Positions 13,566 through 53,496 of a stretch of DNA of 64,000 bases are shown one piece after another. The notes under the pieces are model-generated. The model did no database searches, was not told the DNA's origin, and saw only the letters and a list, made by a program, of their open reading frames with translations. Within the stretch, counting starts at the first letter, position 1; each line of letters starts with the position of its first letter. The stretch comes from Apoderus coryli (taxonomy: Eukaryota; Arthropoda; Insecta; Coleoptera; Attelabidae): contig OU452198.1 of assembly GCA_911728435.2 (NCBI GenBank), positions 35,183,902 through 35,247,901 on the forward strand, in the 5' to 3' direction. A program made the position numbers and the translations under genes.

Positions 13566-13609
13566 AGCCAAACATGTTTCGGAACTTTACTGTTCCATCT
13601 TCAGTGGCA
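13566..13609 (-). ncRNA. hammerhead ribozyme, ACAUGU type
   Basis: On the minus strand: stem I GCCA, then CUGAAGA (position 7 is variable in the hammerhead core), a U, stem II GGAAC/GUUCC with loop AGUAAA, GAAA, palindromic stem III ACAUGU, cleavage base U17, and stem I UGGC closing. All core positions are intact. A degraded tail GTTGAGTCG follows at about 13523-13532. Confidence 0.75.
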
Positions 13610-13801
13610 TTATAAATCTTACAAAGGATTCTTACTTAATGGCTTATGTTGTAATGTGGATTCAAACATTTCATCTTGTGAAAAAAACTTTCATTTAATA
13701 ATAAACATGTTTGAAAAAATAGTCCATTCTTAAGTGGAGTTGCAATTTTAGTGTTTAAATGAAAGTCGAATCTCCACAAAATAAATTTAATAGAAACTAT
13801 C

Positions 13802-13848
13802 GGCCATACATGTTTCGGGACTAGACCAGTCCCATCATCACTGGCATG
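13802..13848 (-). ncRNA. hammerhead ribozyme motif, probably inactive
   Basis: Minus strand: GCCA, GUGAUGA (invariant C3 replaced by G), stem II GGGAC/GUCCC, GAAA, ACAUGU, A17, UGGC. The C3 change should abolish cleavage. It is the inverted partner of the motif at 15256. Confidence 0.65.
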
Positions 13849-14747
13849 TCAACAATCCAACAAACACAACACTAAGACGTACAATGTTTCATTATATTTC
13901 TATTGAAGCCTGGAAAACACACCTCATTCTTAGTTCGTTATCAATATGTGCAATTATCGATTAACTTACCATTTTATGGAAAAATATTTGAATTATAAAA
14001 ATTTTTTAATTAAATTACAGTTACATATTTTGGTCTAATTTTCTTTTTGTATATCATACTTTTCTTTGTTTTCTAATAAAGTGAAAACTATGTAACTATT
14101 TGTTTTTTTGTTAAAGCCGGAATGGCAAGAACGTCATCGACAAACGTAATAAAAAATTTCTTTGTTGGTATGAATATGCGTTGTGTTATATAGGCGATAG
14201 TCTCCAGGCTCCAATTTACAACATGCTCTTAAAATTACAGACAAATAAAGCTTTAGTAATAATTAACTAATCCAGCAATTTTCATACTGATAAATCTAAC
14301 TGAGTCACTAAGGAGTATGATCAGTTCACTGTATTATAAAAGGAACGGTGTAAGATTTTTCAATTATTTTGAGAATTTTAAAACGCCATTGTCGTGTGAA
14401 CGTGCAGTCAATTAAGAACCTAAAATATTATCGAAGAGAAATTTAATCTTCGATGATTTACAAAAAGAAACATAGCATGAAACTTACATTAGAAATAATG
14501 TGATTCTTTAAAAAATTTTTAGTTTTATTTTAAATGTTTAGTAACAAAAACTTAATTTCAAAAACTTTTTATTTTATGACTGAGAGAATAAAAAAATTTT
14601 TTCACACAATGGTAAGTTTAAAAGTTAAAATCATTTTGGTGCAATTGAAAATAATATATACAATCTTACTTCTAGAGTTAATAAATAAATTCCCAAAAAT
14701 AATATGTACTAACTAGTATAACATAGCTTTTCGTAAGAATCTCATAT

Positions 14748-14792
14748 AACCACTGATGATGCGGCCCGGAGCTGCGAAACATATATGGTGAC
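14748..14792 (+). ncRNA. hammerhead ribozyme motif, stem III altered
   Basis: AACCA, CUGAUGA, stem II GCGGC/GCUGC, GAAA, then ACAUAU in place of ACAUGU, A17 and UGG pairing with CCA. The catalytic core is intact but the G16.2 to A change breaks the stem III palindrome. A tail GTGTGGAGGTCGAC follows at about 14828. Confidence 0.6.
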
Positions 14793-15255
14793 AAATGTAA
14801 TTTGTTGAGGATATTTATTAAATTTATTGTGTGGAGGTCGACTTTTATCTCAAGAATATTTTTTCAATTATATTAATAGATGTGTGGAGTTAGGTTATCT
14901 TCGAGGCTCATAAATTTTTACTAAAAGGAAGAGTATGTAGTTGACTTGGGATCTGAACACGTAGAAGAAGAACTTATTAGTATATAAACCTTATTCTATG
15001 ACATTGTTTTTAAGGTTATGATAATATAAACATGTTAAGAAACTCCTTAAGTTGTTATATATTTTTATGGGCCACCATGAATTCTCGTCTAATCGCTTTG
15101 GTAAAGGCATTTTTTATTTATGTTGTATATAGGCATTTGACACAAACCTATAACCATTCGCACATAAAGCTAATAAGGTAAGTATGTTCTTATTTCAAAA
15201 AGGCCAAGGAGTTGAAAAATTGTACGTCTTAGTGTTGTGTTTGTTCGATTGTTGA

Positions 15256-15302
15256 CATGCCACTGATGATGGGACTGGTCTAATCCCGAAACATGTATGG
15301 CC
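15256..15302 (+). ncRNA. hammerhead ribozyme, ACAUGU type
   Basis: GCCA, CUGAUGA, U, stem II GGGAC/AUCCC (four pairs plus one mismatch), GAAA, ACAUGU, A17, UGGC. All core bases are intact; a GUA cleavage triplet is predicted. Confidence 0.75.
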
Positions 15303-15403
15303 GATAGTTTCTATTAAATTTATTTTGTGGAGATTCGACTTTCATTTAAACACTAAAATAAACATGTGGTCAGTCTTTAAAATTATTGAAACTGAAAATT
15401 GAT

Positions 15404-16850
15404 TATATAATAATAATAATAGGTTTATTGTGAAACAAATGCAACAAAACAATTAATAATCTTACAAAAGTACAGTATACATAACTAAATAAAAATTAAA
15501 TAATAATAATAATAATTAATAAACCCAAGATGAAAATATCACACAAAAGAAAAATTCTTGTGCATGGGATCATTCCCATCGGAGAAAAACTTAGATCCAA
15601 ATTACACACTACACGAAATTAACAAGTTAAAATAAGAGAGAAAGAAAGAATACTGAATACCTCATACATACCCCCCGAACGGTTTCACAGACACTTGCAA
15701 TCCTCTCCATACGAGTATTCTACAGCACATTATATGAGTGATAGTTCTTTGGATCTATAAGTCGATGTATTTCTAGTCTTGGTAGGTTCCTCATCCACCT
15801 CATCCACCTCATGAATTTCTTTTTAAACATAGGGGTCGTATTTATTCTTCAAATATTGTCCGGTATAATATTATATAATTTAGGTGTTAAATAAATAAAA
15901 GATCTCTGACCAATTGTTTTTTTGCATTTTGGGAACTTTTAGGTTAGTTTCATTTTGTCTAGATGTGTAGACCTTATTTATGCAAGTAAAAATGCTTCTA
16001 TTTCTATTACAATGCAAAACAATTGTTCTGCAAAACAACTGTCTAGGATCGAGAATATTACTTTCCTGATATAATAGTTCCGTAGAATATATCCAAGGAT
16101 GTGATAAAATTATCTTTAATATCCACTTCTGCGTCGTCTCCAGGTATTTATAAAAGTTGTTTGTTACACCCCCCACCCTATTATTCCATATGTAATATAG
16201 GTTTCCACTAGGGAACGATACAATTGGAGTAGGAGTTGCACATTAAAAAATCTTTTAAAATATTTAAATTTATAAGCCATAGTTCTCAATTTTGCTATTA
16301 AATATTGTATGTGAACGTCCCATTTTAAATTGGTATGAATGTAAATTCCTAGATATTTCACACTATCGGAGCACTTAATCTCTGTGGGGGTTCCTGAAGC
16401 ATGAATACTTAGTGTTGCATAATCAGGTATGTTCCTTTCATAGCAAGAGAAATTCACAAAAGTTGTCTTTTTAAAAATAATAGTTAACAATTTACTGTTA
16501 AAAAACGTGACAATAATTACAAAATCTTGCTCTACCTTTCTCTTTAAGCTACTCCAGGATTCATCTTTATAAAAAACAACTGTATCATCCGCGAAACCTT
16601 TAGAGAAAACAATGCATTAATGTACACAGTAAAAAGGATTGGTCCCAGGACAGTACCCTGAGGAACTCCGTAGGTAATTTTCCTTATACCGCTAACGACA
16701 TCGTCAATTTGGACACACTGTTCTCGATTTTGTAGGTAACTTCTAAATAAATCATTATGTAAAAAGCTAAATACTGTGATACACCGTTTAATGTTGAAAG
16801 TTTCTTTTTTTAAATCATTATAATAAAGAGCATATTGAAAATGCACTTAC
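15404..16850 (-). pseudogene. 5'-truncated LINE, reverse transcriptase and 3' tail
   Basis: Minus-strand order: YLQNREQCVQIDDVVSGI and YGVPQGTVLGPILFTVYINA (RT motif B region, 16544-16846). A frame change removes the YADD-type motif, and then come SVKYLGIYIHTNLKWDVHIQ and LYRSLVETYITYGIIGWG (16164-16490) and ILDPRQLFCRTIVLH (15880-16176). The 3' end at about 15408-15421 is an (AAT)n run, i.e. (TTA)n on the sense strand, the tail seen on other LINEs here. The endonuclease and N-terminal RT are absent; there are three frame changes. Jockey/CR1-like lineage by motif style; non-functional. Confidence 0.8.
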
Positions 16851-16854
16851 GTGG

Positions 16855-17180
16855 TTTGACTTTAATCAAATTCAAAAAATGTGTTGTGGAGTAGACGCCT
16901 TTGATTTATGAATACATCCTGCTGTTCGTCGTAATGGATTACTTTAGAAAATAAAATAATAATTTTTTCATTCTAAATTTTCTTTTTCACAAGGTGTCTA
17001 TTATACATGTTTAAATTTGAATTTTCCATGTATAAACTACTGATGATCTCAGTTTATGTAAATTCTATTTACTATCCCACTGAAGATGGAAGCGAATTTT
17101 CTGAAACAGGTCTTCCTATGTTCCTCCTATGATTTGATCATATATAAATAACGTATTTTGTGGAGGAGACAATTATTATT
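16855..17180 (+). mobile_element. hammerhead-family tails and degenerate copy
   Basis: At 16865-16945 the plus strand carries a complete 3' tail, TTGTGGAGTAGACGC... ending GTAATGGATTACTTTAG. Next, 16955-17180 holds a second, degenerate unit with a hammerhead relic (17074-17116) and a cut tail TTTTGTGGAGGAGAC. The section 16995-17030 matches the inverted sequence at 42905-42940 inside another family copy. It lies just 5' of a truncated LINE. Confidence 0.6.
17074..17116 (+). ncRNA. degenerate hammerhead motif
   Basis: CCCA, CUGAAGA, a weak stem II GGAA/UUUC, GAAA, ACAGGU (palindrome lost), C17, UUCC (does not pair with CCCA beyond one base). Decayed copy. Confidence 0.45.
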
Positions 17181-17548
17181 ACATTTTAATTTCTAATTTT
17201 TGAATAAACGAATTACTGTTTTAATGTTGGTGCCTACTTCTACTTCAGTGTTTAAACAAATTACAAATTTGATTACTAAAGCTTACACACATTTAATTTT
17301 TTTTTTGGCAAAACTAAAACTTTCAATTACCTAATTAACATGCAAAACCCATTCACGTTTTGCTGCAAAATGAAACACGTGCTCCACCAAACACCAAACG
17401 TAAAAATAACCACATTCTGTGTGACAGCCAATAAAATTAAATAGCTGGAAATTTTCGCGTTTTACCAAGTGATGGTACGCATTAAAAATGCAATTGTTCC
17501 ATTTTTTTTGTCTGTGTGTATACTTTTGCGAGTATAAATGGTGGTAAT

Positions 17549-17881
17549 TTATGTGAAACGCGTACGAACAAATGAAATTACAATCGAATGATGATCTTTG
17601 TATTCAGATAACGGCATAAAAAAGGAACAGTCTTTACCAAAGTAAGAAACCTTAGTAAAATTGTATTTTAGACGAATTAAGGTAGTTTCACATATTTTCC
17701 AAGATTTATTCAAGTCATATCTAAAAATACTATTTATTGGATAACGAAGTAGCTCCGGTTCGTGGCACAGGCGTGCTCTTTTCATGAAATTTTGTTTACA
17801 TAATCTTGTAACTTTAAATAACTCCAACACTTTCCAGGTTGAACTATCGCTATCGCCTCCATAATTTATAGTGAAGTTCAT
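17549..17881 (-). CDS. 110-codon open frame of unknown function
   Basis: Intact minus-strand frame with ATG and stop, beginning MNFTINYGGDSDSSTWKVLE, with a mid-part ARLCHEPELLRYPINSIFRY and an end ISFVRTRFT. Amino-acid composition looks protein-like (many aromatic and charged residues spread evenly) and differs from nearby LINE pieces, but I recognise no domain, signal peptide or membrane segment. It could be a host gene fragment, a retrocopy or a transposon ORF. No neighbouring feature helps, and no intron or poly(A) signal is evident. Chance ORF remains possible. Confidence 0.3.
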   Translation of the reverse strand: MNFTINYGGDSDSSTWKVLELFKVTRLCKQNFMKRARLCHEPELLRYPINSIFRYDLNKSWKICETTLIRLKYNFTKVSYFGKDCSFFMPLSEYKDHHSIVISFVRTRFT

Positions 17882-18067
17882 TGCGGTTTCTGTACATTAT
17901 AATTTAAAATAAAATAAACAATACACCATTATTTATATTATTAAACTTAATTATAACCATTTTACCAAGTTTTTTGTCAATTAATTATTAATTTGAATGA
18001 CTTTTTATCTAGGGTTGTAGAACTCATGTAAGTAACACTCTAAACTCTAAATTGAATCAATCAAAAA

Positions 18068-18105
18068 GGCGACGTTTCGCAGGCTATATTGCCGCTTTAT
18101 CAAGC
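18068..18105 (-). ncRNA. degenerate ACGU-type hammerhead-like motif
   Basis: The minus strand reads CUUGAUAAA, a GC-rich stem (GCGGC...GCCUGC), GAAA, ACGU, C. The general order matches the ACGU-type motifs at 19981 and 58697, but the CUGANGA box is altered. Confidence 0.35.
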
Positions 18106-18136
18106 TCTAAAACACAATTCAATACATTAACGAAAC

Positions 18137-18162
18137 CAAAGATTAATGTACATTAATCTTTG
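18137..18162. repeat. perfect 26-bp palindrome
   Basis: CAAAGATTAATGT is followed at once by its exact inverse complement, with no loop. Isolated; function unknown. Confidence 0.8.
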
Positions 18163-18169
18163 ACGAAAC

Positions 18170-18998
18170 AATACGAATCATCAATCCAAATCTTACTTTT
18201 TATAAAAAATTAATGAATCTCTAGTTGTTTAACAATAACTAACCTAACTATGTTAATCAAAAGTTAGAAATATAAAAGTAAACTTCTTGAAGTTTTAAAT
18301 AATTTTAACGAATTTTATTACACGCACATAACAACTGTTTCACCAACACATTGGTTTTTTTCAAGGTCGCGTCACGACACGATTTATAATATGATCGTCC
18401 CGCAAAAGAGATGAAGCATATAACAAATATGAGGGAGAGAGAGAGACTATATCCTATACCGTACACTATTAATATAGCGGCTTAACGTTGCCTATCCTTC
18501 GGTTGTCCCTTTTGTACCGTCATTCGTATTCACTTCTATCACGTGTACTGTGCTGCACGCGTATTTTTTTTATATTTCGAATTATTTTGACCCCTTCTCC
18601 ACTAAATAACTAGTCAATATTTCTGCTATGTTTCGGAAATATGTTTTAAGTTTTTAACCTCTTTTCGAACGCCTATGTCTATTTTTCATGTTAAATGCTT
18701 TAGGTTATGTTCTGTTAAATTAATGAGAAATTATTATTGCCGATATGTTTAACAACTATAAATTTTTGAACCCTTTGTTAAACGTCTTACCTACGCTCGC
18801 TCGCTTTTCGAAAAGTTAATAACCACCTAGAATTATCAGGAAGTATTTTTGTACCAAATTTGTTAAAAATCTGTTGATAAGTGAGTTTTGAGTAATCGTG
18901 GATACAGATTTTTTCTGCCCCTTTTTAGAGTTTTAACGGACGCCTATGGTACAGATATTTTTTGTCGTTTATTTATAACACCAGTTAAAAGGCTAAAT
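18170..18998. other. unassigned DNA
   Basis: No gene or repeat recognised; includes a (GA)n stretch near 18433-18445. Confidence 0.4.
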
Positions 18999-19102
18999 AT
19001 ATAATATTTATCTTCTGAAATAATCCATTACGACGAGGAGCGGGATGCATTTACAAAACAAAGACGTCTACTCCACAAAATGTTTTATATTGATGTTCAC
19101 TT

Positions 19103-19146
19103 AGCCAAACATGTTTCAGAACTCACTGTTCCATCATCAGTGGCTT
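19103..19146 (-). ncRNA. hammerhead ribozyme, ACAUGU type
   Basis: Minus strand: AGCCA, CUGAUGA, U, stem II GGAAC/GUUCU with loop AGUGA, GAAA, ACAUGU, U17, UGGCU. Five-pair stem I and all catalytic bases intact. Confidence 0.8.
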
Positions 19147-19519
19147 TAATAAGCTTTTACAAAAATCTTACCTAGTGTCTAAGCCGTATACAGATTTTCG
19201 AAACATGAATACATTTTGTGAAAACTATTCAATAGTATAAAAAAATAATTGAGGTCAAATGATAAAATTTTTAAAATTTAGAAAACTTAAGAGCTTAAAA
19301 ATTAATTACACCAATTGCAAACAGTAAATTTCATAGTGAAAGATTTAATGTAAATGTTTTTTCCTGTAAATCATTTCTATTAAAGATCTTTGAAAATATA
19401 TTTATGTAGTTCTGATTTCAACCAAATTCGGTTGAATAGTTTTCACAAAATGTATTCATGTTTCGAAAATCTATGTATACGGCTTAGACACTAGGTAAGA
19501 TTTTTGTAAAAGCTTATTA

Positions 19520-19563
19520 AAGCCACTGATGATTGAACAGTGAGTTCCGAAACATGTTTGGCT
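19520..19563 (+). ncRNA. hammerhead ribozyme, ACAUGU type
   Basis: AGCCA, CUGAUGA, stem II GAAC/GUUC (the pair next to the core is changed to U/C), GAAA, ACAUGU, U17, UGGCU. Inverted partner of the motif at 19103. Confidence 0.75.
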
Positions 19564-19644
19564 AAGTGGACATCAATAGAAAACATTTTGTGGAGTAGAC
19601 GGCTTTGTTTTGTAAAATATAATATTTACTTTATTTCCCTTATT

Positions 19645-20115
19645 TTTCTTGAACCATATATTTATAATTTTTGGATGTATCGTTATTGAGTTTTAGGTTC
19701 GTATTAACAACAAAACTGAAATAAAGTTTTTTTTTTAAATTCATGTCGTAGTTCATTTTTCGACGTTTCGAACAACATTTTCTTCTCTTAGTCCTCCAAC
19801 ATCATCTCTTTTTTTTTCTTCCTTCTCTCTCTCCAACTTTTTGTTTAGAAATCCTTTTTTTTTCCAAACCAAAATTCTCTTACCCACACCAAATATTACA
19901 AAGCGAATTATGGAGAGAGAGAAGGAAGAAAAAAGGAAGGCCACTAATGAGATCTTGGGGGACTAAGACATAAAAGAAAATTCCTGAAGAAGACAAGAAA
20001 ACTTTGTCGAAACGTAGAAAAAAGAAATATGACATGAAACAAAAAAAAAATATTTAATTTTTGTTGTTAATACGTACTAAAACCCAATAACAATATCCAA
20101 AAATTATAATATTTC
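19645..20115. mobile_element. second fold-back element with ACGU-type hammerheads
   Basis: Inverted arms: 19650-19790 and 19965-20110 share (inverted) AATTTTTGGAT, the GTTGTTAATACG region, GACATGAA and the GAAACGT core. The right arm has an intact ACGU-type hammerhead (19981-20025). The left arm has lost the CUGANGA box by deletion but keeps TTCGACGTTTCG-type remains at 19757. It starts within about 30 bp of the preceding fold-back's target duplication. No open frame of note. Confidence 0.6.
19981..20025 (+). ncRNA. hammerhead ribozyme, ACGU type
   Basis: Stem I UUC, CUGAAGA, A, stem II GACAA/UUGUC (five perfect pairs), GAAA, self-complementary ACGU as stem III, A17, GAA closing stem I. All invariant core bases present; stem I is only three pairs. 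Confidence 0.65.
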
Positions 20116-20235
20116 CAGTTTAATTTTGTTGACCCTTTTTCTACTATTATTTTTTATTAACGTATATGCAAACAAGGTTCTTATGCCGCATCTTATATCG
20201 AAACTATAATATTAACCAATTTTTCTAGTATGTTT

Positions 20236-21650: not shown

Positions 21651-21699
21651 TTATCACACAAAATTATGCTGGCAAATATCAAAAGTATCCTATCGCTGT

Positions 21700-30328: not shown

Positions 30329-30366
30329 TATAACCTGAAGAAGGCAACAGCGAAACGTTGTTTAAA
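30329..30366 (+). ncRNA. hammerhead ribozyme, ACGU type
   Basis: Stem I AAC, CUGAAGA, a short stem II (GC/GC, loop AACA), GAAA, ACGU, U17, GUU closing stem I. Core bases intact but stem II is minimal; likely weak or inactive. Confidence 0.5.
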
Positions 30367-30548: not shown

Positions 30549-30549
30549 T

Positions 30550-31840
30550 GAAATTATTAGGTTCAATAAAGCAGTAGTATGATATGAAATGATTAATATT
30601 TAGATAGAAATTTTGGACACCGTGTATATAAAACCCACAACACTGCATTTTTGGAAAGTAAACTGATCTTAGTTTAAATTTTTTACAAATTTACAGTTAA
30701 ATTAAATGAAAAATGACGGCGGAATTGAAATTTAAGTGACGTAGTTATTTCGTCAAAAAAAAATCTAAACATATTCAATAACATGGCGATATCGCGTTTT
30801 TAAACAAAAATAAATATTTTAGAGTTGAACAAAAGATCCAATCGGATACTAATATCAATAAAAATCGGTAGGACATCCCGTTAAAAAAATTAACCCTGTT
30901 TAAGTCAAATTATTTTTATACTATTAGCATAACGCTAAACAACATTTTTATTGAATTAAAAACCATTTAGCTGCAATCAAATACCGGAGAGTGTTAAATA
31001 GACACCCTGTATATAATAAAAAAAATTGAAAAGTTAAAAACAAAGAAACTCTGTTAGCTAATTTTTCCGACGTTTCTAAAAAAGATTATCCACCATCCTC
31101 AGAACAAACCGTTATTGTTAGTTTTGTTAGTTTTATCGAAAAATAGCTCATAACATCCTGACTACTTCTTTCCTTTCGAATTTGGGACACCCTGTTCACT
31201 ACTTATAAGTGATGCAGAAATAATAAAATGATAGAGGCATAGTCCTGAAAACTTGATTTCGTTAGCCTTTTTTGAGATCCAAATTCGGACAAAATAGCCA
31301 TAGTTTAGTCTTCTGAATGTATGCAATTTATGTATGTTACATACATACGCTTAAAGCGGTTTCCGGTTAAATATCAATTGTTTGCTGTCGCTACTCCGGT
31401 CATAGTCCGGCTGCTGCACGACAACAACGTCGCTCTCCGTCTTTCCTCTATTATGGGGTTGCACGGAGGGTGACTTTTAAGGGATGACAATTGCGCCACT
31501 GTTACTGTCGGGACGTTAGATGCGCTCCAATGATTATTTGGCTTTTCATGTCAGGCTATACAGTGTGGAATAGAACACAAATACTTATTGAAAGCGCTTT
31601 TACACGAGTCATGTAGTGATCCTTAGGAACTTTTTTAACTGTATAACAAAGGAAACACCAATGGTGTAATTAATTTCAAATAAGCTTCCCTTTGAAGGAA
31701 AACTTTCACTAAATATATTTCTAAGGCGCCAATCAATACTCTGATTTCATCTAACAGTTTGTTAACAATCCGTAAGATAGTTGAAGCAAATACACTCTTG
31801 AATTCACATAAACTTCAGCGACATAACGAAACTCGTGATG
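30550..31840. other. unassigned DNA with CAGGGTGTC-type relics
   Basis: Contains GACACCGTGTATATAAAA (30616), GACACCCTGTATAT (31002) and GGGACACCCTGTTCAC (31184), resembling ends of insect DNA transposons, but no matching pair or transposase was resolved. 31380-31490 is relatively GC-rich without a frame. Confidence 0.35.
31066..31104 (-). ncRNA. degenerate ACGU-type hammerhead motif
   Basis: Minus strand: CUGAGGA, a long poorly paired stem II, GAAA, ACGU, C17. Stem I pairs only through G.U wobbles. Confidence 0.35.
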
Positions 31841-33477: not shown

Positions 33478-33850
33478 TTTAAAGAAGTAGTCCATTCTAA
33501 AGTGGAGTGAATGTATTGTAGCAGGAAATAAAACGTCAGACTCCACGAAATCAGTTTAACACATTACACTTAATGTGTTATGTCGATTAAAGCACCAAAC
33601 ATGTTTCGAAGCTCACTAGCTTCATCATCAGTGGTAACATTTAGTAGAGAAACTGTATTTTGTAAATATTACATTAGTATGACTATATTAAGAGTAATGT
33701 GTTGAAGTCACCTCGAGGAAAATTCTTGTTAAAACTATGAAATTAAATTTTACGTTATTACATATTGCTGTTTTTCTTTTTGATCATTTTTTAAAAATTG
33801 AATTTTTATAAAATTTTTATTTTATTTATATGGTTGTTTTCTACGCAGCA
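33478..33850 (-). mobile_element. hammerhead element, 373 bp, about 10-bp TSD
   Basis: Absent from the related transposon copy at 59.7-60.7 kb, so its boundaries are defined by an empty site. Flanks repeat TTGGATTAAT / ATGGATTAAT. The minus-strand 3' end shows the complete family tail: TTTCGTGGAGTCTGACG, the complementary ACTCCACTTTAG, and AATGGACTACTTC. It contains one intact hammerhead (33592-33636) and, unlike other copies, no inverted second arm. Confidence 0.8.
33592..33636 (-). ncRNA. hammerhead ribozyme, ACAUGU type
   Basis: ACCA, CUGAUGA, U, stem II GAAGC/GCUUC (loop UAGUGA), GAAA, ACAUGU, U17, UGGU. Stem I and stem II both differ from other copies with pairing retained. Confidence 0.8.
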
Positions 33851-35784: not shown

Positions 35785-36005
35785 GCATTTCTCATACATA
35801 AATCAATAATAATAATAACGATTCATAGCTTTCGTAACTAACTAACCACTGATGATGGGTCATGTGCTCCGAAACATGTATGATTGTAAATAATTTGTAG
35901 ACGAATCTATTAAATTTGTTTCGTGGAGGTAGACTTTTATTTCCTAAATTAATCACATCATTCAACTCCACTTTATCATGGACTACTTCTTTAAAATTTC
36001 TGATT
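35785..36005 (+). mobile_element. hammerhead element, plus orientation
   Basis: A hammerhead (35843-35887) is followed by the full 3' tail: TTTCGTGGAGGTAGAC, complementary AACTCCAC, and ATGGACTACTTCTTTAAAAT ending near 36003. The 5' boundary is unclear. The long minus-strand frame over this region (35792-36109) is a shadow. Confidence 0.65.
35843..35887 (+). ncRNA. hammerhead ribozyme, ACAUGU type, weak stem I
   Basis: ACCA, CUGAUGA, U, stem II GGG/CUCC, GAAA, ACAUGU, A17, UGA. Catalytic core intact; stem I pairs only two bases before a mismatch. Confidence 0.6.
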
Positions 36006-37529: not shown

Positions 37530-37645
37530 AAATCATCCTAAGCGACGAAGCACATTTTCACCATGATGGGTTTGTTAATCGCCAAAACTGGCGCTTTTTT
37601 TTTGTGAGAACCCACATGTGATTTTTGAAAAACAAATTGAATTGG
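37530..37645 (+). pseudogene. short DDE transposase fragment
   Basis: The plus strand reads LSDEAHFHHDGFVNRQNWRF (37537 on), then a one-base slip and ENPHVIFEKQIEL. This is the first catalytic Asp region (SDEAHF...G.VN.QN.R.W..ENPH) of DUF4817-class transposases. It abuts the 3' truncation point of the RTE LINE. Confidence 0.7.
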
Positions 37646-37649
37646 TTTT

Positions 37650-39950
37650 TGAAAAACAAATTCTACACTTTATTTTTTTGAAGTGGTCCCATGATTCACT
37701 GAGGTTACAACCAACATAAGTAAAACTGCGCACTCTCTTTATATACAGCACACCGCGTTGATTAGGGGACTTACTTATAACCACGTATCTGGTCTTCTTA
37801 ATATTCAGTTCTAACCCGTATTGTTCGTTTGTGTGTGTAACTCGGTTGGTAAGTTCCTGTAGCCCCTCCAAGTCATCGGCTAGGAAAACCGTGTCGTCGG
37901 CATATCTAATATTGTTGATCCACTCACCATTCACCTTAACACCGCCTGTGGTGTCTTCCAGTGCCTCCCTAAATATTTTCTCCGAGTAGAGGTTGAACAA
38001 TAAGGGAAGACCTATGGTTGCTTTCTGATTCCAATAAAGATTGGCAATGATCCTTATGTCCTTTTCATCTAAGCCCGTTTCACGAAGAACTTTTATCATC
38101 GTTTCGGGGTGACAGCAATTCATATTCCTACATCGTTGTATAAGAACTTGTATGACAAATAGGAATGCTTCTCGAGTACCGATGCTGTTGCGAAATCCGA
38201 ACTGTGATTGGCCCATATATTCTTCGCATTTATTATATAGGCGGGCATGAATTACCTTCCGTATTGTTTGTATTATCAGGTTTTTCTGGACGCTGATCAT
38301 CTTTGAAGAGTTCAAGTATGTATTTCTGCCATGTTTTTAGTTTTTCGTTCACTTCATTGACAAGCTTGCCTTGTTCATCCATAATGATTTCTGTTGTTCT
38401 TTTTTTGTGTCTGCCTGTGACTTCTTTGATTTTATTATATATATTAAACGTGTCATGCTTACAATCAAGTTCTTCAATCTCTTGACATTTCTCACTCATC
38501 CATCTTTCTTTAGATTCTCTGATTTTTTGTTTAATGGCACTATGAATTCACCCTTCGTCTGTCTTCCATCATCTCCAAGATTTCGTCGGTCATCCACTGC
38601 TTCTTCTTTTGTTGATTATTAGTAGAAGTCAGGAATTGCTCGCAAGCCTGGGTCACCGATTCTTTGAAAGCTGTCCACGTGTATTCTATTTGAGCTTCCT
38701 CTAGTGTTGTCTTTTGTCATTCTGCACTTATCGCCCTTTCCACTGCATGCTGTATTTCCTTATCCTGCAGCTTATCAATATCATATTTTTTCTTATTCAT
38801 TGTGGCTTGGGCAATCTGAGTAGTTCGTGGTTTAGCTCTCAGTACGCAGACTATGGGAGTGTGATCAGATGGAACATCTGCTACTGGATAAGATTTGACC
38901 GATATTATGCTGTTTCGAAACCTCTGATTAATCAGGATAAAATCTATTTGATTTCTCACGATATTATCTGGTTTGTCCGCTGGTGCTTTCCAAGTTTACA
39001 AGCGTCGTGGTGGTAGTTTGAACAATGTATTTGTTATTACCATGCGTTCCTCTCTACAGAATTGTGCCAGTCTGTCTCCTCTTTCGTTCCTCCGTCCTAG
39101 ACCAAAGTCACCCACTATTTCGTCCTCCTTTCCGTGTCCAACCTTAGCATTGAAGTCTCCCCTCACCATGTTTACCTCTCTTGCTTTAACGTTTTTAAGT
39201 ACTTCTGTTATTTGAGCATAAAGGTCTTACACTTCCTCTTCACACAGGGCATATATTTGTATAAGATTTATGTTCCTCTGAGCTTTAGCAAAATAACCCT
39301 GTCAGAGTATGGCACGCAGCTAATAATGGAAGGTTTCAACCCCTTCCTCACGATAAATCCAACTCCCTACAGGTGGTTTCTCTATTCGTTTCCAGCATAA
39401 TAAACTATATAATCTCCTATCTGGCATTCTCCGCTTCCTCGCCATCTAATTTCACTGATACCCATCACGTCAATACTCAATCTGTTCATTTCCTTTATTG
39501 TGTTATGAATTGTTCCTGCTTCAAACATACCTCTGACATTCCAGGTGCAAATTTTCAGCGCCGGCCGGGAGATTCTTCGCACCCTCTGACCATTGAAGGT
39601 CTGCCCGGGACTGAGGGCCATTCTTGCAGTTTTTCCGGCCATGAAGATTTTCCTGGGAAGAGTTAGTGTAGTGGTTTTCCGTTGCCTTCTACACCGCTGT
39701 ACAAACGCCGTTTCAGTGGATGCCACTCCGCCGTTTGCTGTCTGAAACACAGCCAATAATGTTTCTCAAATTTATGCCTGTGGACAGTTTTGAGACAGGC
39801 AGCTGCCGCTGCTCAGTGCTAGTTTTGGTCCGCCCCGAGTATTTCATTTCCTCGGTACCACCCATATCTGGGAGGCCTGCCCCTATCCGCCACCTGGGGA
39901 GGCGCCCGATGGGGGACTAGCAACCCCACACGGGTATAGCGTGGATAATT
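37650..39950 (-). pseudogene. RTE-like LINE (craniofacial development protein 2-like type), 3'-truncated and decayed
   Basis: In minus-strand order: a GC-rich 5' leader with CCCGATGGGGGACTAGCAAC seen inverted near 39905; LTLPRKIFMAGKTARMALSP; then the AP endonuclease LKICTWNVRGMFEAGTIHNT, IDVMGISEIRWRGSG, RGDFNAKVGHGKED and NQIDFILINQRF with SDHTPIV. The linker follows (DEQGKLVNEVNEKLKTWQKY ... LELF, 38233-38499). The RT comes next: IIQTIRKVIHARLYNKCEEY, GQSQFGFRNSIGTREA, then IRYADDTVFLADDLEGLQEL (catalytic YADD) and ELNIKKTRYVVISK, ending at SFTYVGCNLSESWDHFKKIK. Stops and frameshifts separate endonuclease, linker and RT; a PQG-containing stretch is deleted before YADD. The C-terminus is cut near 37650. 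All plus-strand frames here are shadows. Confidence 0.85.
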
Positions 39951-42720: not shown

Positions 42721-43239
42721 CTTAAAGTAGTCCATTTCAATGAAGACTGGGCTCTATTTGGAAATGAAACGACGTCTACTCCACAAAATAGGATATGTAT
42801 ATATGTTCAAATCAAAGGAAGAACAGAGCCAGTCATGGTTCGGAATATCTGGAGTGGTATATAACATAGAATTTAAATACATTTAGATCTTTTTATTGGT
42901 TATACATGGAAAATTCAAACATTTATAGGCATCCTGTGAAAAGAAAAATTTTAAATAAAATTATTATTGTTATAAATAATAAAATATAAGTTACATATTG
43001 AATTTTGATCGTTGAATTATTTCTTTTTGTATATCATTTTAAGTTAATAATATAGAAATTGAGATAATTAAATGTTGCTCATTGCCAATAAATTTAGTTT
43101 ATACAATATAAAAACGGAATGAAAATTTCCATTTCATGTGATATGCCACTGAAGATGTAATAGAATATTCCGAAACATGTCTGGCTATGTTGTTCCTTTG
43201 ATTTAAACATATATAAATAACGTAGACGTTGTTTTATTT
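42721..43239 (-). mobile_element. hammerhead fold-back element inside the recombinase
   Basis: Flanked by CCAGGATTTGGTAATTTT (42703-42720) and CCAAAATTTGGTAAATTT (43240-43257), an 18-bp duplication with three differences, both encoding the NLPN segment of the recombinase. The minus-strand 3' end is at the left (AATGGACTACTTTAAG with TTTTGTGGAGTAGACG upstream); the right end is the inverted tail truncated after AACGTAGACGTTG. It carries an intact-core hammerhead (43143 plus) and a deleted one (42826-42858 minus). Confidence 0.8.
43143..43188 (+). ncRNA. hammerhead ribozyme, ACAUGU type, GUC site
   Basis: GCCA, CUGAAGA, U, stem II GUAAUA/UAUUCC (one mismatch), GAAA, ACAUGU, C17, UGGC. A GUC cleavage triplet is the most efficient natural type. 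Confidence 0.7.
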
Positions 43240-45425: not shown

Positions 45426-45429
45426 AAAG

Positions 45430-45562: not shown

Positions 45563-45569
45563 AATCGCA

Positions 45570-46240: not shown

Positions 46241-46249
46241 AAATATTGT

Positions 46250-47420: not shown

Positions 47421-47429
47421 ACATGAAAC

Positions 47430-48325
47430 TCAATCTTCACATTCACAAAGGCCCAGCCCATATGACATAGAGTACTACAGAGTTTACGTCCAAATCAACA
47501 TCATTGTTGTCCTATGGCCTTGAAATCCTCATATTCCCCAACTAAGCCATTGGCCATAAAATGCCTAAGATCATGATGATCCACATCATCAACGATGAAA
47601 AACTGTTTGCAATGTTGGGCTTACGTATCCGTACCAAATTCAAGTGTCATTTGAAAGTTAAAATTGTTTTCAATATGCACGAAGTTAGTGAAGTGAAGAA
47701 TCCAATCCAAGTCTTGGTAAAATGTGCCTCTATGATAATGTAACTAGTATAAATTTTATTTTGGGGAACAAAAAACGACATTTGAAAGAACCTGGCATAG
47801 AAAACACCTAGTTGCAGCAGAATGCGCCATCATGTAATAAAACCATAATAATAATTGAGATCTTGACTTATGTATTTGAACTAAAATCCTCTGAAATATT
47901 TTATTAATGCATTTTTTATAATTCCTGTCATTTCGATCCTTCTACTACTAATAAAACAAAACTTCATCTTTTCATATCATATATTATGATGTAGTTATAA
48001 ATTCGCATCTATTTCGATTTCCCCGTTGTCAAATTAAATACACCGAAAGAACTAAGTATACACAATAATAAAAATGATAAACACACCAGGAATTCCAATA
48101 ACTACCACAGGGAATTTCCTGTGAAAGCAGGAAATATGTGGTGGCTGGAAAAGTATGTATATAGGATGTTCTTCCCGAAGTTACAGTCATAAACATCGGT
48201 AGTACGGAAATCCTGATAAAGTGTTCTTATTTTTTAGCAAAAGCTATTGATATTTTCTAATATACACATACTAATAATAATATACAGAAACAAGTTGTGC
48301 GCTTTGTTTCGAAATTGCTGAAATA
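47430..48325. other. unassigned DNA
   Basis: No gene recognised. Confidence 0.4.
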
Positions 48326-48329
48326 CGAC

Positions 48330-48610
48330 CAACAACTATCTCGCGTAGAAGTTATCCTGAAATGATTAAACCCAGTCCAGAAGAGGGACATCATATAAAC
48401 CGAGAGAATTCTAAGACATCGTTGATTATACTTCTCTAGGTTCTTTAAATGGCTGCAATAAGTGGTCCAAGACTCACAGCTATACGCAAGGGTAGGAACC
48501 ACAATAGCATTATACTCTCGCAACTTAGTTCCAACGTGGATGTTATGATTATCAAACAAAGACTCTCGTCCTCAGACGGCCAAAAGATGCGCTTGCCCAT
48601 CTTATATCAG
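48330..48610 (-). pseudogene. LINE RT C-terminal fragment
   Basis: Minus-strand reading: LFDNHNIHVGTKLREYNAIV, VPTLAYSCESWTTYCSHLKN, LEKYNQRCLRILS. This fits the block L...V..KL..Y.A.V.PTL.YGCE.WT.......LE..HQRCLR found after the RT palm in craniofacial-protein-like LINEs. Short, dead fragment. Confidence 0.75.
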
Positions 48611-48619
48611 CAACTGGAA

Positions 48620-50245
48620 CTTCTTAAAATGGTCTTAACAGATTAAGAATCAATGGTATAACGTCGAACTGCATTCCCAGTCCTCCCATTCGAAAGTACT
48701 TGAAAGAATTGCTATAAATTTAGTGTAGAAATTCTCAATAGCCATTTAGAAATATACAGGATACAATGTCGAATGTAATACTCAATTATCGTACTGAAAC
48801 TGCCTGAATTTCCAATCAAATTCTCTAAAAGAACTTGCTCAGTAAAGTCCATCCATCATTACTTCAAATGGCTTTAACATGTGAAGGATTATCGGCAGAA
48901 AGTCGAACTCAATGTCCTGTCATCCCATTAGAAACTGTCTGAAGTTTCGATTACTTAATCAAATGCAAAGTGCATCAGGAGTTTTATTCAGAGTAAAAAA
49001 TATTAGAAATTGCTTCTGATACCTTTATTGTTGTTTTTGCTACGCTAATTTATAATTTGTCCTATTTCTGAGACAGAACAAAACCAATAAGGAGCAACAT
49101 TAATGTTCAATCAACTGTTGACGAACGCAAAACAGAATCGCTGAAGAAACCCAAACGGTTTTGCTGATAAGTGTGTTCCGGAAGTGTTTCCAAGATTGGA
49201 AAAGGTGCTATAGCAAAAGCATATTAATTCTAAGAAGGATTATTTTGTAAGGATAATGTATAGGTAAATAAAGATTTTTGAAAAAATATTAGCTCTTCCT
49301 AATCCAAATAAATCTTGATTTGCATGGGAATAGTTTAATCACTCATCAGATAGCTCGGACTTGCCTACCACTGATCTCTGATTCTGAGGAAACCAAATTT
49401 TGCCACATATGACTGACTTCTCTGACGAGGATATTCGAAAGTTTATACTACTTTATAACAACTGTCAACTTAAGTAGCTGGAAAAGGAAGACAAATAATG
49501 TCTGTCTCCTATGTCCATTCTTCCGAACTCACCCTGTTTGTCGACGAACCTAATTACCAATGTCACATTACGAGAAATTGGTCCATATAAACAAAACATT
49601 AAATCTCTTATCAAAACAGAAGCATACTGTCTGTGGAGCTGGGGTCATTTCCAAAATATTTAAGTGACACACAATAGACGTATAAAAGGGATCGTCTGAT
49701 GACGCCGAGGGTATGTACGTGCACTAGCCGAGAGATACGAAGATTCATACAAGATTAACATTCCAATAACAAACAGCATGACAAATATTGAGTCTGATAT
49801 GCCAAAATTAGGCGGGGTATTGACCAACTGCACCAATGGAATGGATTTTTCCTTTTTAATTTATTTCAAAGGATCACGTTATTTTGTGTATAGGTATATT
49901 TGAGAGTGTTCAACCCGACAATTTTCACAAGGAGATTATTTCAATTGTTATGTTATAGTAGTAGTTTACTAGTTAATAACACAAGTTCTATTATGGATCA
50001 TCCACGGGCCAAATGAAACACAAAGCATCGAAAATGCCTCTACTTGTGGAGCAAACCTACTGAATTTGGACAACTTTCAGATTTAAATTTTAGGCAAACT
50101 TTTAATATTTACTCTTCAATATAGAACATTAAAAGCGGTCAAGATGCATTAAGGCTTCAGGCGTCCTAGAGATGTCAAAAAATATCTAATTCTATATAGT
50201 TGAGGAATACAAATTAGATCTAGTTATTACAAAATGATGTTTAAG
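48620..50245. other. unassigned DNA
   Basis: No gene recognised. Diverged similar stretches at 48664, 48770 and 48903 (GTCGAACT.... CCCATT.GAAA) hint at an old tandem repeat. Confidence 0.35.
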
Positions 50246-50252
50246 TGACTAA

Positions 50253-51700
50253 AACCACATTGTCTCGCTCCTGCCCAATTTCTCGAAGGTTTTTGAGGCG
50301 GCATTACACCGAAAAATCTTTACTCAAATTAAGCATCAGATTGATCCACAGCAGCATGGTTTTTTCCCAAGCCGCTCTACAGTAACCAACCTAACCTGTT
50401 TTTTAGAGGATGTATTTCGTACCGTCGGGGAGGGTCTGCGGATCGATGCCATTTATACAGATTTTTCGAAGGCTTTCGATAAGCTGGATCATTCGCTTGT
50501 CCTACGGAAAATGTCGAGGTTGGGTTTTCATGAGGATCTTTTAACGTTTTTTGCCTCCTACTTGTCTGATCGACAACACTATGTCGAATACAATGGTCAT
50601 AAATCGGAAACTTTCACACCCACCAGCGAAGCGCCTCAGGGCAGCTGTTTGGCACCATTAATATTTTCAATTTTCATTAATGACATATCCCAGGAACTTA
50701 CAAGCAACCATTTGATGTTTGCAGACGATCTGAAGTTGTATCGTGTTATTCGAGACACTTCGGATTGCGTATTGTTACAGCGCGACTTGAAGATTGGTGT
50801 AACTATAATAAATTGCCTTTAAATATTAATAAATGTAAGTTTGTCATATTTTCGAAATCGCAAACTGTTTTTGAATATCGCTATCAGCTGAATGACACTG
50901 CGCTTGAGTGTTGTGATGTTGTCAGGGATCTTGGAGTTTCCGTCGACACTGAATTGTCATTTAATTATCATATTCAAAGTACTATCCGAGATGCACTACG
51001 CATGCTTGGCTTTTTGTTTCGTGTTACCAAAGATTTTAGTGATATTGAATGTGTAACTAAGTTATATTGTGCTCTGGTAACATCTAAGCTTGAGTACGCA
51101 TCAATATTGTATTATAATACAGTCTCCCATTTACCAATCTCATGCAGGACACATTGAATACATACAGCGCAAATTCTTTAAATATTTAGCGTTTAAAATT
51201 GACGGTAGATTCGCATGTAGAGGATTCGATCATAGAGTACTGCTCGATCGCTTTCAAATGGTTTCGCTGGTTGCTCGCAGAGTGTATGCCGGACAACTCT
51301 TTCTGTTTAAGATTACAAATAGCTTGGTGGACTGTTCAAATCTACTCCAATCGTTGAATTTTAACATACCGCGCCCCTCCTCTGCGAGGAGTAACAGACT
51401 AATTCACGTTCCTGTTTTTCGTACTAATTATGAATCCAAAGCACCACTACTTCGAGCATGCCAAACATGTAACATAGAAGGATTTAGTCAAGAAATTAAC
51501 TATTTCAATGCGCCTGTAAGATCTTTCTGCGCTCAATTGTCTCGGTTCCTGCAAAATCTAGCCATCTGATGTGTGTGCGTATTTTGTTTTGTAGGATTAT
51601 TAATTAGTTTATTATTAGTAGCTTATTTATTTAGTTATATTGTCTTGTAATTGGGTCTGTAACCTGTTAGACAATAAAGAATATTATTATTATTATTGTG
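50253..51700 (+). pseudogene. Jockey-like LINE, RT domain to 3' tail, three frames
   Basis: One long open stretch from 50253 starts NHIVSLLPNFSKVFEAALHR, then QQHGFFPSRSTVTNLTCFLE, IDAIYTDFSKAFDKLDHSLV (motif A), EAPQGSCLAPLIFSIFINDI (motif B) and HLMFADDLKLYRVI (catalytic FADD). After a frameshift near 50790 it reads LEDWCNYNKLPLNINKCKFV, DLGVSVDTELSFNYHI, LYCALVTSKLEYASILYYN; after another near 51130, HIEYIQRKFFKYLAFKIDGR to LSRFLQNLAI. The 3' end is AATAAAGAAT then (ATT)n at 51682-51699. It is 5'-truncated with no endonuclease. The best-preserved RT in the window, only two frameshifts. Confidence 0.85.
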
Positions 51701-51750
51701 TTTCCGGCAAGCACCCTTCCGAGAGTGGGACAAGTCGATTGGACAAATTT

Positions 51751-51800
51751 GATTCACCACTGATGATCTATGGATCAACGAAACGGTCCGTCTAGTGAGG
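51751..51800 (+). ncRNA. hammerhead-like motif with hairpin stem III
   Basis: UUCACCA, CUGAUGA, an irregular stem II (UCUAUGGAUCAAC), GAAA, stem III ACG/CGU closing loop GUC, C17, UAGUGA pairing with UCACCA with one mismatch. Stem II can instead form UGAUC/GAUCA using core bases. Different from the two palindromic stem III groups. Confidence 0.5.
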
Positions 51801-51809
51801 CAAATAAAA

Positions 51810-53265
51810 AATTGATTGAGGGTTTGTTATTACCTATTTGACCATTATGGTGCAGTTGAGATGGTCCACAAATAAATATTTCGGTAAATCACATTTTACA
51901 CAAACATATATGCTCAACCCTCTTTTTCCACACAATAAGTCCCCAAAAATATACATTTAGTGTAAGGGTGATTTTCTGGTGGCTTTAACTACGGCTGACC
52001 ATAGAAAATTTGCTAATATCTGAAAATAAATCACATTTTATCATAGCAATAATATTCCTGTATTATATAAGAAGATTTGTCTTTCGCCTGACGCAAAATA
52101 CATGAGAAGAGATGGTCTTATTTACCCTCATTTTGGATATTTTATGTGAAACCATAAATATTTTGACGTATAATGCGGGAAATGAATATTATTTTCTTTG
52201 AAGAATTTAATAATACTGGATTTTTCAAATTATTACAACACTAGATTGAAATATTTCATTATTAATAAAGAAAACGACGAGGGAGTATTCGGAAGTAATA
52301 TAAAAAGTAGTAGTTTTAAAATTGGATCTGCATATCGTTATTATTTATTATTATTGAATGAATTTAAGGAGAAATACAGATGCGAATATAGTTAATTAAT
52401 AAAATAATGAAATTGTGAATTTAAAGGATATGATCTGGTGAAACACCGATTTTTAGTAGACAAATTAGGTTTGAATTGAATTCTTTTTTATACAATGTAA
52501 CAGTGTGTTAATATATTAGTTGTAATTTGGTACGTAATTGTACAATATGGACCAGTTTCGAGAGCGGAAGACAGACAGAGAACCACAAAACAATATCAGT
52601 TTGTATATCAAAATTTTTACTAAAAATTTTAGATCACATCATCGCACAATCACTATGAAATCTACCCGAAATATTGTCTATCGTTCGCCACTCTTTTCTG
52701 GAGGCAGTTGGTAGACGCGCTTGGTTCTGATTTATACCGGTTGTATTGCAGCATGCACAATAGTATTATTATACCAGTTGTACTTTGTTGTATTAAATGG
52801 TTTTTACTGAAATAAATAATAATAAGAATGATTCATTTTTAATTAAAAATTAATGAATAATAATTTGATATTTGAACAAAAACTTTGTTTTCCACTATAT
52901 TCTTAACATTAAATTGTCCAATGATTTATAAACATGTAATTAGATATACGTTGCATATTTATCTTTGTTTAAACTTACACAAGAAATAATTATAAAATAA
53001 AATATTTACAAAATAACTTTGTGATTAGTCGTACGTTTTCGTTGTAGTGTTTATTAAATTGTGTATTAGTTTGATATAAATATCTTATATTGAAATTCAT
53101 TTTAAAACGTTTTTTAATTTGTTATTTGATTAGTTGTTTAGTTAATAGCATGGTTTGTAGGCAAGTGATATTGTCTTGTCTTATGTAAAAGTACGTGATA
53201 AGATGTTTTAATTTTATAAAAAAATTATGGAATATTTGTATTGGATTTTTAATGTAACATTGTTA
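51810..53265. other. unassigned AT-rich DNA
   Basis: No gene recognised. Confidence 0.4.
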
Positions 53266-53270
53266 TATTT

Positions 53271-53496
53271 AAAGAAGTAATCCATTAGATGCAGTGGAGT
53301 GTAATATAATTACAATAAAACAAAAATCATCGTCTCCACTATTTAATTAGTCCATAAATTATGAAATGTCAAAGGGACATGTTTCGGAGACTCAGCTCCA
53401 TCATCAGCCTTGGTGGTATAAAATGCTCACTTTGTGAAGGCAGAGCTCCTAACAGAGTCTGTTAGGGAGACGATGATTTTTGTTTTATTGTAATTA
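53271..53496 (-). mobile_element. 226-bp hammerhead fold-back element with perfect 12-bp TSD
   Basis: Flanked by ATTGTTATATTT at 53259-53270 and 53497-53508. The minus-strand 3' end is at the left: AGTGGAGACG hairpin strand, complementary CTCCACT, then AATGGATTACTTCTTT. The right end is an inverted tail piece (GGAGACGATGATTTTTG, truncated). One intact hammerhead (53369-53413). Smallest complete copy with all parts. Confidence 0.85.
53369..53413 (-). ncRNA. hammerhead ribozyme, ACAUGU type, GUC site
   Basis: AAGG, CUGAUGA, U, stem II GGAG/CUCC, GAAA, ACAUGU, C17, CCUU. Stem I is entirely different from the GCCA/UGGC of other copies, yet all four pairs are kept. Confidence 0.8.

What the first reader, a model, noticed from the sequence alone, without database searches (positions are those of the whole stretch)
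13566..53413. A multicopy hammerhead ribozyme family with covarying stems
About ten sites share the order stem I - CUGANGA - stem II - GAAA - ACAUGU - H17 - stem I on one strand. Seen directly: stem I is GCCA:UGGC (13566, 15256, 19103, 19520, 43143), ACCA:UGGU (33592) and AAGG:CCUU (53369). Stem II is GGAAC/GUUCC, GAAGC/GCUUC, GGAG/CUCC, GCGGC/GCUGC or GUAAUA/UAUUCC. Pairing is kept while sequence changes, strong evidence for an RNA structure. Stem III is a palindrome, so cleavage would probably need a dimer or a tandem transcript, as described for small hammerheads of Penelope-like elements and animal retrozymes. Oddity: most copies have one extra U between CUGANGA and stem II.
Basis: partly seen in the sequence, partly recalled or inferred. 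Interest (0 to 1): 0.88.

Follow-up and report, generated by a model that had tools for sequence, protein, structure and literature searches.

The report
Hammerhead-like motifs in Penelope retrotransposons
The repeated RNA motif is a minimal hammerhead-ribozyme variant carried near the end of very abundant Penelope-like jumping genes, a known association, and the copies hint at how these elements insert: as two back-to-back DNA copies, one with a longer end than the other.

Summary
In detail: ten strong copies in the window, five per strand, and 10,339 exact matches of the loose motif genome-wide against 10 for the reversed control. Stems I and II covary. No Rfam family reaches its gathering score.

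The copies match the hammerhead variants of Penelope-like elements (PLEs). In L009 the motif flanks a reverse transcriptase plus GIY-YIG-like ORF; in L048 it lies just upstream of a PLE ORF. PLE hammerheads are known. The 'extra U' also occurs in the tested Anolis PLE hammerhead (my parse).

Among the first 100 listed places, same-stem neighbours within 5 kb are divergent, 10 of 10. Of 17 head-to-head insertions read, 15 have flanks sharing 11-16 bp (mismatched flanks: 7 of 272) and 16 have exactly one 'tail', the ORF start. A seven-unit array has the same two ends. This favours two cDNAs started at two sites over fold-back self-priming.

Cleavage is untested; energy models favour another monomer fold. 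Verdict: new member of a known kind, with informative insertion anatomy.

The parts
13565..13610 (-). hammerhead-type motif, stem I 4/4, stem II 5/5, N7=A, H17=U
13801..13847 (-). hammerhead-type motif of the left arm of a head-to-head PLE insertion; C3 changed to G
14747..14791 (+). hammerhead-type motif of another family, single copy lying between the arms of the 13711-15359 insertion; ACATAT in place of ACATGT
15257..15303 (+). hammerhead-type motif of the right arm
13711..15359 (.). head-to-head PLE insertion: inverted arms 13745-13891 / 15213-15359 (97%), tail on the left end only, shared 11-bp flanks AATAAACATGT; ends approximate
19102..19146 (-). hammerhead-type motif, left arm
19520..19564 (+). 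hammerhead-type motif, right arm (U in place of G10.1)
19010..19616 (.). head-to-head PLE insertion: arms 97% complementary, tail on the left end only, shared 11-bp flanks; left end approximate
33592..33637 (-). hammerhead-type motif of the L009 PLE family; its 3' end carries the tail
35843..35886 (+). hammerhead-type motif, single copy with tail (stem I 3/4, stem II 4/5)
43143..43187 (+). hammerhead-type motif; a decayed inverted partner lies at 42789-42848 (87%)
53370..53413 (-). hammerhead-type motif with AAGG:CCUU stem I
53268..53496 (.). PLE insertion read by eye: left arm with motif and tail, right arm only 31 nt (53466-53496) with a short end; left end approximate; not among the 17 counted
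17079..17113 (+). decayed motif (22.7 bits)
58703..58732 (-). second hammerhead-like class (CUGAGGA-U-GGCA..UGCC-GAAACGU), left one of a divergent pair
59106..59134 (+). partner of the same pair, decayed core (CUCAGGA)

Best explanation
Each site is the minimal hammerhead variant of a Penelope-like element. In the family where I could place it (L009/L048), A9 lies about 100 nt (short end) or 136 nt (tail end) from the 3' end of the insertion. Shown by sequence: PLE ORFs, some in tandem units of about 3.5 kb; hammerhead, then a GTGGAG/CTCCAC hairpin, then the ORF start; insertions made of two head-to-head arms, one ending in the hairpin loop and the other within the first codons of the ORF, with 11-16 bp of shared flanking sequence. 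Inferred: the element's protein cuts both target strands and starts one cDNA on each, at two nearby sites in the same RNA region, as described in vitro for the Anolis PLE. Also inferred: the hammerhead works as a dimer through its ACAUGU palindrome, or with help from the element's protein, cutting multimeric PLE transcripts into unit RNAs. My estimate is about 0.95 for identity and anatomy, 0.7 for two-sided priming, and 0.4 for the cutting role.
For: Own-genome count 10,339 against 10 in the control. L009: RT (PF00078, E 9.6e-13), GIY-YIG-like C-terminus aligned to a PLE protein (E 3e-11 for that pair), and a motif at each end. L048: hammerhead, hairpin, ORF MDYFFK.... Tail codons M-D-Y-F are kept with synonymous changes in 12 of 13 printed tails; L023 reads GACCAT. 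Covariation: 56 double-change cells against 16.3 in shuffles, 0 of 500 reach it (on pairing-filtered copies); stem II tests without that filter. Divergent arrangement in 10 of 10 same-stem neighbours against 5 -+, 4 +-, 3 --, 2 ++ in 14 different-stem neighbours (first 100 listed places). Shared flanks in 15 of 17 insertions against 7 of 272 mismatched flank pairs. One tail in 16 of 17. A seven-unit array of about 22 kb with the same two ends and a 12-bp shared flank. H17 is A 50, T 7, C 2 of 59.
Against: No RNA evidence. In 6 of 6 sequences folded, the monomer's lowest-energy fold is a rod that pairs AUG with CAU, not the hammerhead, and the hammerhead dimer is not the best dimer either. Rfam finds nothing. 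In the Anolis element the hammerhead was inactive without protein, its mutants did not affect insertion in vitro, and no reads began or ended at the cut site (PMC11167929). The 13801 copy has a C3-to-G change of the kind that abolished cleavage there. A looser tail scan (two mismatches) also reports tail-like words on three ends I call short (L011:1020, L016:889, window 15263); in sequence they do not read as tails.
Confidence: 0.78

Rival explanations
1. Rolling-circle variant: dimeric hammerheads cut multimeric transcripts into monomers, the host ligates them into circles, a monomer circle (single motif, rod fold) is not cut again, and RT runs round it, giving tandem arrays on each side of the insertion.
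For: Tandem units 3,485 bp apart in C15 (three intervals), 3,483 in C19 (two) and 3,487 in C101 (one); six of the seven C15 units score identically against the RT query, and that array has one tail and a 12-bp shared flank. RT start sites lie just downstream of the ribozyme, near the 5' side of a cut unit RNA, where a linear cut RNA would give cDNAs of only about 70-110 nt. The monomer favours a rod, the palindrome allows dimers. A circle-templated tandem cDNA is proposed in print for retrozymes (PMC7229834, passages).
Against: A linear multimeric transcript of an older array gives the same arrays; the Anolis study proposes an mRNA of multiple copies. No circles were looked for here. One C15 interval is 3,273 bp and its seventh unit is partial with a stop. 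The inner ends of arms do not cluster clearly at the cut site (small sample).
Confidence: 0.3
2. Fold-back self-priming: one cDNA folds back and copies itself, giving the head-to-head arms.
For: Proposed for rotifer PLEs (PMC3846280, passages); arms can be identical (L016: 350 nt at 100%).
Against: A simple fold-back copy would repeat the same outer end on both arms. Here 16 of 17 insertions have one long and one short end.
Confidence: 0.12
3. The motif is kept as a structural signal (RNA dimerisation or protein docking beside the RT start hairpin) and cleavage is incidental or lost.
For: Rod and dimer folds are stable. Hammerhead mutants still insert in vitro in the Anolis PLE. The extra base and GAAACAUGU are nearly invariant across 33 stem II types. 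The rod as a whole, which shares stems I and II, also pairs 95.5% of cells.
Against: N7 varies (61 T, 11 A, 4 G, 1 C of 77 distinct motifs), which breaks a rod pair and is free in a hammerhead; but that pattern fixed CATGT, so compensated forms could not appear, and the count of them did not complete. H17 avoids G. The rod's own three AUG:CAU pairs show no change on both sides.
Confidence: 0.2
4. DNA transposon or MITE terminal inverted repeats.
For: Inverted ends with shared flanks, hundreds of bp apart.
Against: Asymmetric ends; PLE ORF between the ends and arms of unequal length in L009; four and three PLE units in the C15 array.
Confidence: 0.02

Closest known systems
Poseidon PLE of Anolis carolinensis (PAc) and its hammerhead (PMC11167929, all four parts read)
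   Same: CUGANGA, one extra U, stem II, GAAA, palindrome, H17, stem I (my parse of the printed RNA); RT start in a stem-loop 111-118 nt into the ORF with a second site, the tail between them being 30-40 bp (here about +100 and +136 from A9); both strands cut and extended in vitro
   Different: There the AUG formed by A9, the extra U and G10.1 is the ORF start and stem III is ACGU; in L048 the ORF starts about 118 nt further on, inside the tail, and the hammerhead AUG frame closes early in the families whose frame I followed by eye; stem III is ACAUGU
Minimal type-I hammerheads of PLEs (Cervera and de la Pena 2014; Lunse et al. 2017; neither held; known to me from citing passages)
   Same: short or absent stem III, thousands of copies, dimer cleavage reported in the title of the 2017 paper
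   Different: whether the extra base and the six-base palindrome are in their sets could not be checked
Adineta vaga Penelope families (PMC3846280, passages)
   Same: inverted pLTRs, 8-10 bp TSDs, tail optionally on one inverted pLTR, DNA captured between pLTRs
   Different: low copy number there; the word hammerhead does not occur in it; self-priming is favoured
Metazoan retrozymes (PMC7229834, outline and passages)
   Same: type-I hammerhead, dimer dependence in amphibians
   Different: 170-400 nt non-autonomous elements in direct tandem repeats; not the arrangement here
CChMVd viroid hammerhead with an extra core nucleotide (De la Pena and Flores 2001, seen only as a reference title and an unnamed mention; virus name and position recalled)
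   Same: an extra base after A9 (recalled)
   Different: viroid, different stems (recalled)

Membership tests
Canonical type-I hammerhead ribozyme | CUGANGA and GAAA core, H17 not G | tested here: met
Canonical type-I hammerhead ribozyme | stems I and II paired with covariation | tested here: met
   the alignment came from copies passing a pairing filter (59 of 68 candidates), searches had no such filter but fix the core and cover stem II only
Canonical type-I hammerhead ribozyme | stem II directly after A9, no inserted base | tested here: not met
   stem II with at least 4 of 5 pairs in 74 of 77 with the base skipped, 5 of 77 with it included
Canonical type-I hammerhead ribozyme | stem III within one molecule | tested here: not met
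   ACAUGU could leave only a 2-nt loop (sequence)
Canonical type-I hammerhead ribozyme | match to an Rfam hammerhead model | tested here: not met
PLE hammerhead variant (as in PAc) | extra base after A9, palindrome in place of stem III | tested here: met
   here; PAc by my parse
PLE hammerhead variant (as in PAc) | lies in the pLTR beside the RT start hairpin of a PLE | tested here: met
PLE hammerhead variant (as in PAc) | cleavage after H17 | not testable with these tools
   no bench or RNA data
Penelope-like element | RT plus GIY-YIG ORF | tested here: met
   Pfam alone did not report the GIY-YIG part
Penelope-like element | pLTRs, tandem or inverted copies, tail, TSD | tested here: met
Retrozyme | short ORF-less direct tandem repeats giving circRNA | tested here: not met
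   no same-stem direct neighbours among 24 neighbour pairs within 5 kb (first 100 places); one short inner direct copy in L016; circRNA not testable

The most novel reading that the evidence does not exclude
The palindromic hammerhead is a copy-number gate: multimeric transcripts cut themselves because neighbouring motifs pair, while a ligated single-unit circle with one motif stays in the rod fold and survives as a rolling-circle template for the PLE reverse transcriptase, primed from both strands of the target at two fixed start sites. This would explain tandem arrays, head-to-head arms and the one-tail rule together.
Probability: 0.25. Interest if true: 0.8.

Novelty: new member of a known kind. 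Interest (0 to 1): 0.42.

Why it matters
The role of hammerheads in Penelope-like elements is called a mystery in a 2020 review (PMC7761336, passages). This genome gives more than ten thousand exact-core matches in many stem II families, open PLE frames, and insertions whose two ends can be read. It therefore allows direct tests of how PLEs prime reverse transcription and whether the ribozyme feeds that step. The one-long-one-short pattern argues against the self-priming idea in print, for the 17 insertions read here.

Tried and rejected
Start-codon explanation of the extra U: attractive because in PAc A9-U-G10.1 is the start codon. It fails as the sole reason here: in L048 the main ORF starts in the tail, the hammerhead AUG frame closes after 4 to 16 codons in the six families I followed by eye (sequences), and 4 of 77 distinct motifs have A instead of U. 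In the GAAACGU class the base is A in 8, T in 6 and G in 1 of 15 loose candidates.

Rod fold as the conserved structure: lowest energy, but N7 varies and its own three pairs show no double changes. The planned genome count of the compensated rod form did not complete, so this is not closed.

5' ends at the cut site: three of four truncated arms start 7 nt before to 13 nt after H17, the fourth about 114 before; other held arms start elsewhere (L020 about -31; 53466 at +39; both arms of the mini element about 5 nt before GTGGAG). One search scored 40 of 1,288 candidates, so this is no result. The planned 26-mer counts did not complete. The BLAST part handled strand wrongly for minus-strand copies; only its printed L020 sequence was used.

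Pairs seen but not in the 17: 53377 (one tail and a shared flank, by eye), L020 (tail on one end; partner short), L044 and L030:2273/2532 (ends not examined).

MITE/TIR and retrozyme readings rejected as stated above. Density from random stretches was 3 exact motifs in 90 kb; replaced by the whole-genome count.
Full report
WHAT IS THERE. Eight exact matches to CTGANGA..GAAACATGT lie in the window with none in 100 shuffles. A covariance model from 31 copies finds ten strong copies and one decayed copy in the window, and six strong plus one weak in nine other 10-kb stretches of the genome. Seven window copies and five of those other copies were used to build the model, so they match by construction. 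The strong window copies are five on each strand. No Rfam family reaches its gathering score in the window, and no hammerhead family appears up to E 10 in 13300-15500 (the rest was not searched that loosely).

SCALE. The whole genome (428 Mb, 129 contigs) has 10,339 exact matches of the loose motif and 10 of the pattern read backwards; stems were not checked in that count. The stricter form with CTGATGATG and TATGG has 2,066, control 0.

STRUCTURE. Among 99 hits that I copied out (56 distinct stem II inserts; core, G10.1 and TATGG fixed by the pattern, stem II free), pairs 10.2 to 10.5 are standard in 52, 52, 50 and 50 of 56. Shuffles average 32, 42, 39 and 30 and reach at most 41, 48, 46 and 38; pair 10.6 is not supported. 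Among the 100 hits listed (77 distinct), 74 pair at least four of five when the extra base is skipped and 5 when it is included. In a 31-row alignment (24 of 26 stem II types from the other loci plus 7 window copies), chosen from copies passing a pairing filter and so biased upward, 95% of cells pair, and 56 cells change on both sides against 16.3 in shuffles. That set includes stem I as ACCA:UGGU, GCCA:UGGC and AAGG:CCUU. H17 is A 50, T 7, C 2 in the 59 filtered copies. N7 is T 61, A 11, G 4, C 1 of 77. These are hammerhead rules. Against them, nearest-neighbour energies prefer a rod in which AUG of CUGAUGA pairs with CAU of ACAUGU, in 6 of 6 sequences folded without flanks. The rod's own three pairs have no double changes, but the decisive count of compensated forms did not complete. 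Stem III cannot close in a monomer (two-base loop) but ACAUGU pairs with itself in a dimer.

THE EXTRA BASE. All 59 filtered copies have U between A9 and stem II; of 77 distinct genome motifs 73 have T and 4 A. A second class in the same genome, with GAAACGU, also has a base there: of 15 loose candidates, stem II of at least three contiguous pairs forms in 6 with the base skipped and in 1 with it included. The Anolis RNA printed in PMC11167929 reads, by my parse, CCU-CUGAGGA-U-GCC..GGC-GAAACGUC-AGG, and the paper's cut site 26 nt downstream of the start codon fits that parse. So the extra base is found in PLE hammerheads of two hosts at least, and the Anolis ribozyme was seen to cleave when protein was added.

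THE CARRIER. L009 holds an RT (PF00078, E 9.6e-13) followed by a GIY-YIG-like end with the motif at each end of the insertion. Its named protein relatives include Diabrotica proteins at 39-42% identity, so the host is probably an insect, perhaps a beetle (inference). A search with that RT scored 87 of 2,662 candidates; many have open frames of 850-887 aa, and several lie about 3.5 kb apart in the same direction: 3,485 bp three times in C15, 3,483 twice in C19, 3,487 once in C101. L048, an ORF-to-ORF junction of the C15 array, shows in order: stop of one ORF, about 780 nt, hammerhead, GTGGAGT/ACTCCAC hairpin, and the next ORF with first Met MDYFFKINNASQ. The tail of other copies is this same ORF start: 12 of the 13 distinct tails printed read ATG GAY TAY TTY, and L023 reads ATG GAC CAT TTT.

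HOW INSERTIONS ARE BUILT. Of 24 neighbouring motif pairs within 5 kb in the list (first 100 places, the first 3.3 Mb of C1), 10 share a stem II (same length, at most 3 differences) and all 10 are divergent; the 14 others are mixed, 5 -+, 4 +-, 3 --, 2 ++. I read 17 head-to-head insertions: 11 in L009-L019 (places), L023, three in the window (13808, 19109, 42789), the C15 array, and a mini element at 58985-59092. Longest words shared by left and right flanks are 11-16 bp in 15 of 17 against 7 of 272 mismatched flank pairs; the search did not require the word to abut the element. The two misses are L023 (6) and the decayed 42789 pair (9). Exactly one end carries the tail in 16 of 17: 14 by scan with one mismatch, the C15 array, and the mini element by eye. 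The scan also gives one tail for the 42789 pair, but it is too decayed to count. A two-mismatch scan reports tail-like words on three ends I call short; I reject them on sequence. L016 has a third, inner direct copy. The C15 array, with RT units at 217741-, 221014-, 224499-, 227984- and 229444+, 232632+, 236117+, ends with a tail on the left and a short end on the right, and its flanks share TATTATGAATAT. The simplest reading is one insertion of two multimeric cDNAs. Against perfect regularity, one C15 interval is 3,273 bp and unit 229444 is partial with a stop. Short and tail ends lie at about +100 and +136 from A9. The Anolis PLE starts RT at +111 to +118 and at a second site, the tail between them being 30-40 bp, and cuts and extends both strands.

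MECHANISM. Shown: anatomy, covariation, asymmetry, shared flanks, tandem units. Inferred: the element protein nicks both strands and starts one cDNA on each, at different start sites, on one or two RNAs. A simple fold-back copy would carry the same outer end twice, so the asymmetry speaks against the self-priming proposal in PMC3846280. In L048 the cut site lies about 70-110 nt upstream of the two start sites and of the ORF. Cutting there would split multimeric transcripts into units whose start hairpin is at the 5' side. Such a linear unit could template only about that length, so if cutting precedes reverse transcription, a circle or an uncut neighbour is needed. The circle model is my most novel reading and is not proven; linear multimers remain possible.

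WHAT IS KNOWN. PLE hammerheads, tandem and inverted pLTRs, TSDs and the optional tail are all in print. Six library searches were run: Penelope-like with hammerhead ribozyme (22 papers); hammerhead with terminal inverted repeats and miniature inverted (1); Penelope-like elements with inverted, pseudo-LTR, tail (39 with at least three terms, 12 listed); the 2017 title words (7); with Coleoptera (0); with circular RNA, reverse transcription and tandem (5). Of the papers listed I read one whole and passages of six. I saw there no statement of a strict one-tail rule or of a circular PLE template, but the two key papers (2014, 2017) are not held and most subscription journals are missing.

VERDICT. 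By its tested features this is not a canonical hammerhead (extra base, no stem III in one molecule, no Rfam match); it belongs with the PLE hammerhead variants and would work like them. That makes it a new member of a known kind. The insertion anatomy raises it above routine.

Noticed in passing
58985-59092: Mini PLE insertion of about 105 bp: both arms start just upstream of the GTGGAG hairpin, tail on the left only, shared flank ATACATTGTTTA; it lies inside the 58703/59106 pair of the second hammerhead-like class.
   Followed up: partly
19984-20015, 30335-30358, 31070-31102, 58703-58732: Second hammerhead-like class with GAAACGT, 4 exact matches, none in 100 shuffles; 31070 and 30335 have poor stem II. 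Its genome count did not complete.
   Followed up: partly
13892-15212: About 1.3 kb between the arms of a PLE insertion; the part next to the left arm (to about 14136) matches other copies of the family, 14367-14861 matches another PLE family (L002/L022), and the rest showed no match among the rows printed against held loci.
   Followed up: partly
8261-8969: Overlapping minus-strand frames that look like a broken mariner-type transposase (recalled; no family search run on them).
   Followed up: no
10651-11049: 132-aa frame resembling the N-terminal part of Crypton-like tyrosine recombinases (recalled; Pfam found nothing).
   Followed up: no
50253-50822 (+) and 37575-38336 (-): LINE-like reverse transcriptase fragments (RVT_1, E 2.5e-19 and 6.8e-12; LINE is my guess).
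   Followed up: no
L022:197-233, L032:1876-1912, L037:9852-9888: A separate dispersed repeat containing CTGACGTTAGGTATAGG..GAAATATGT (first two) or a diverged form (third) that mimics the motif in loose searches but pairs only 1 or 2 of 4 in stem I.
   Followed up: no
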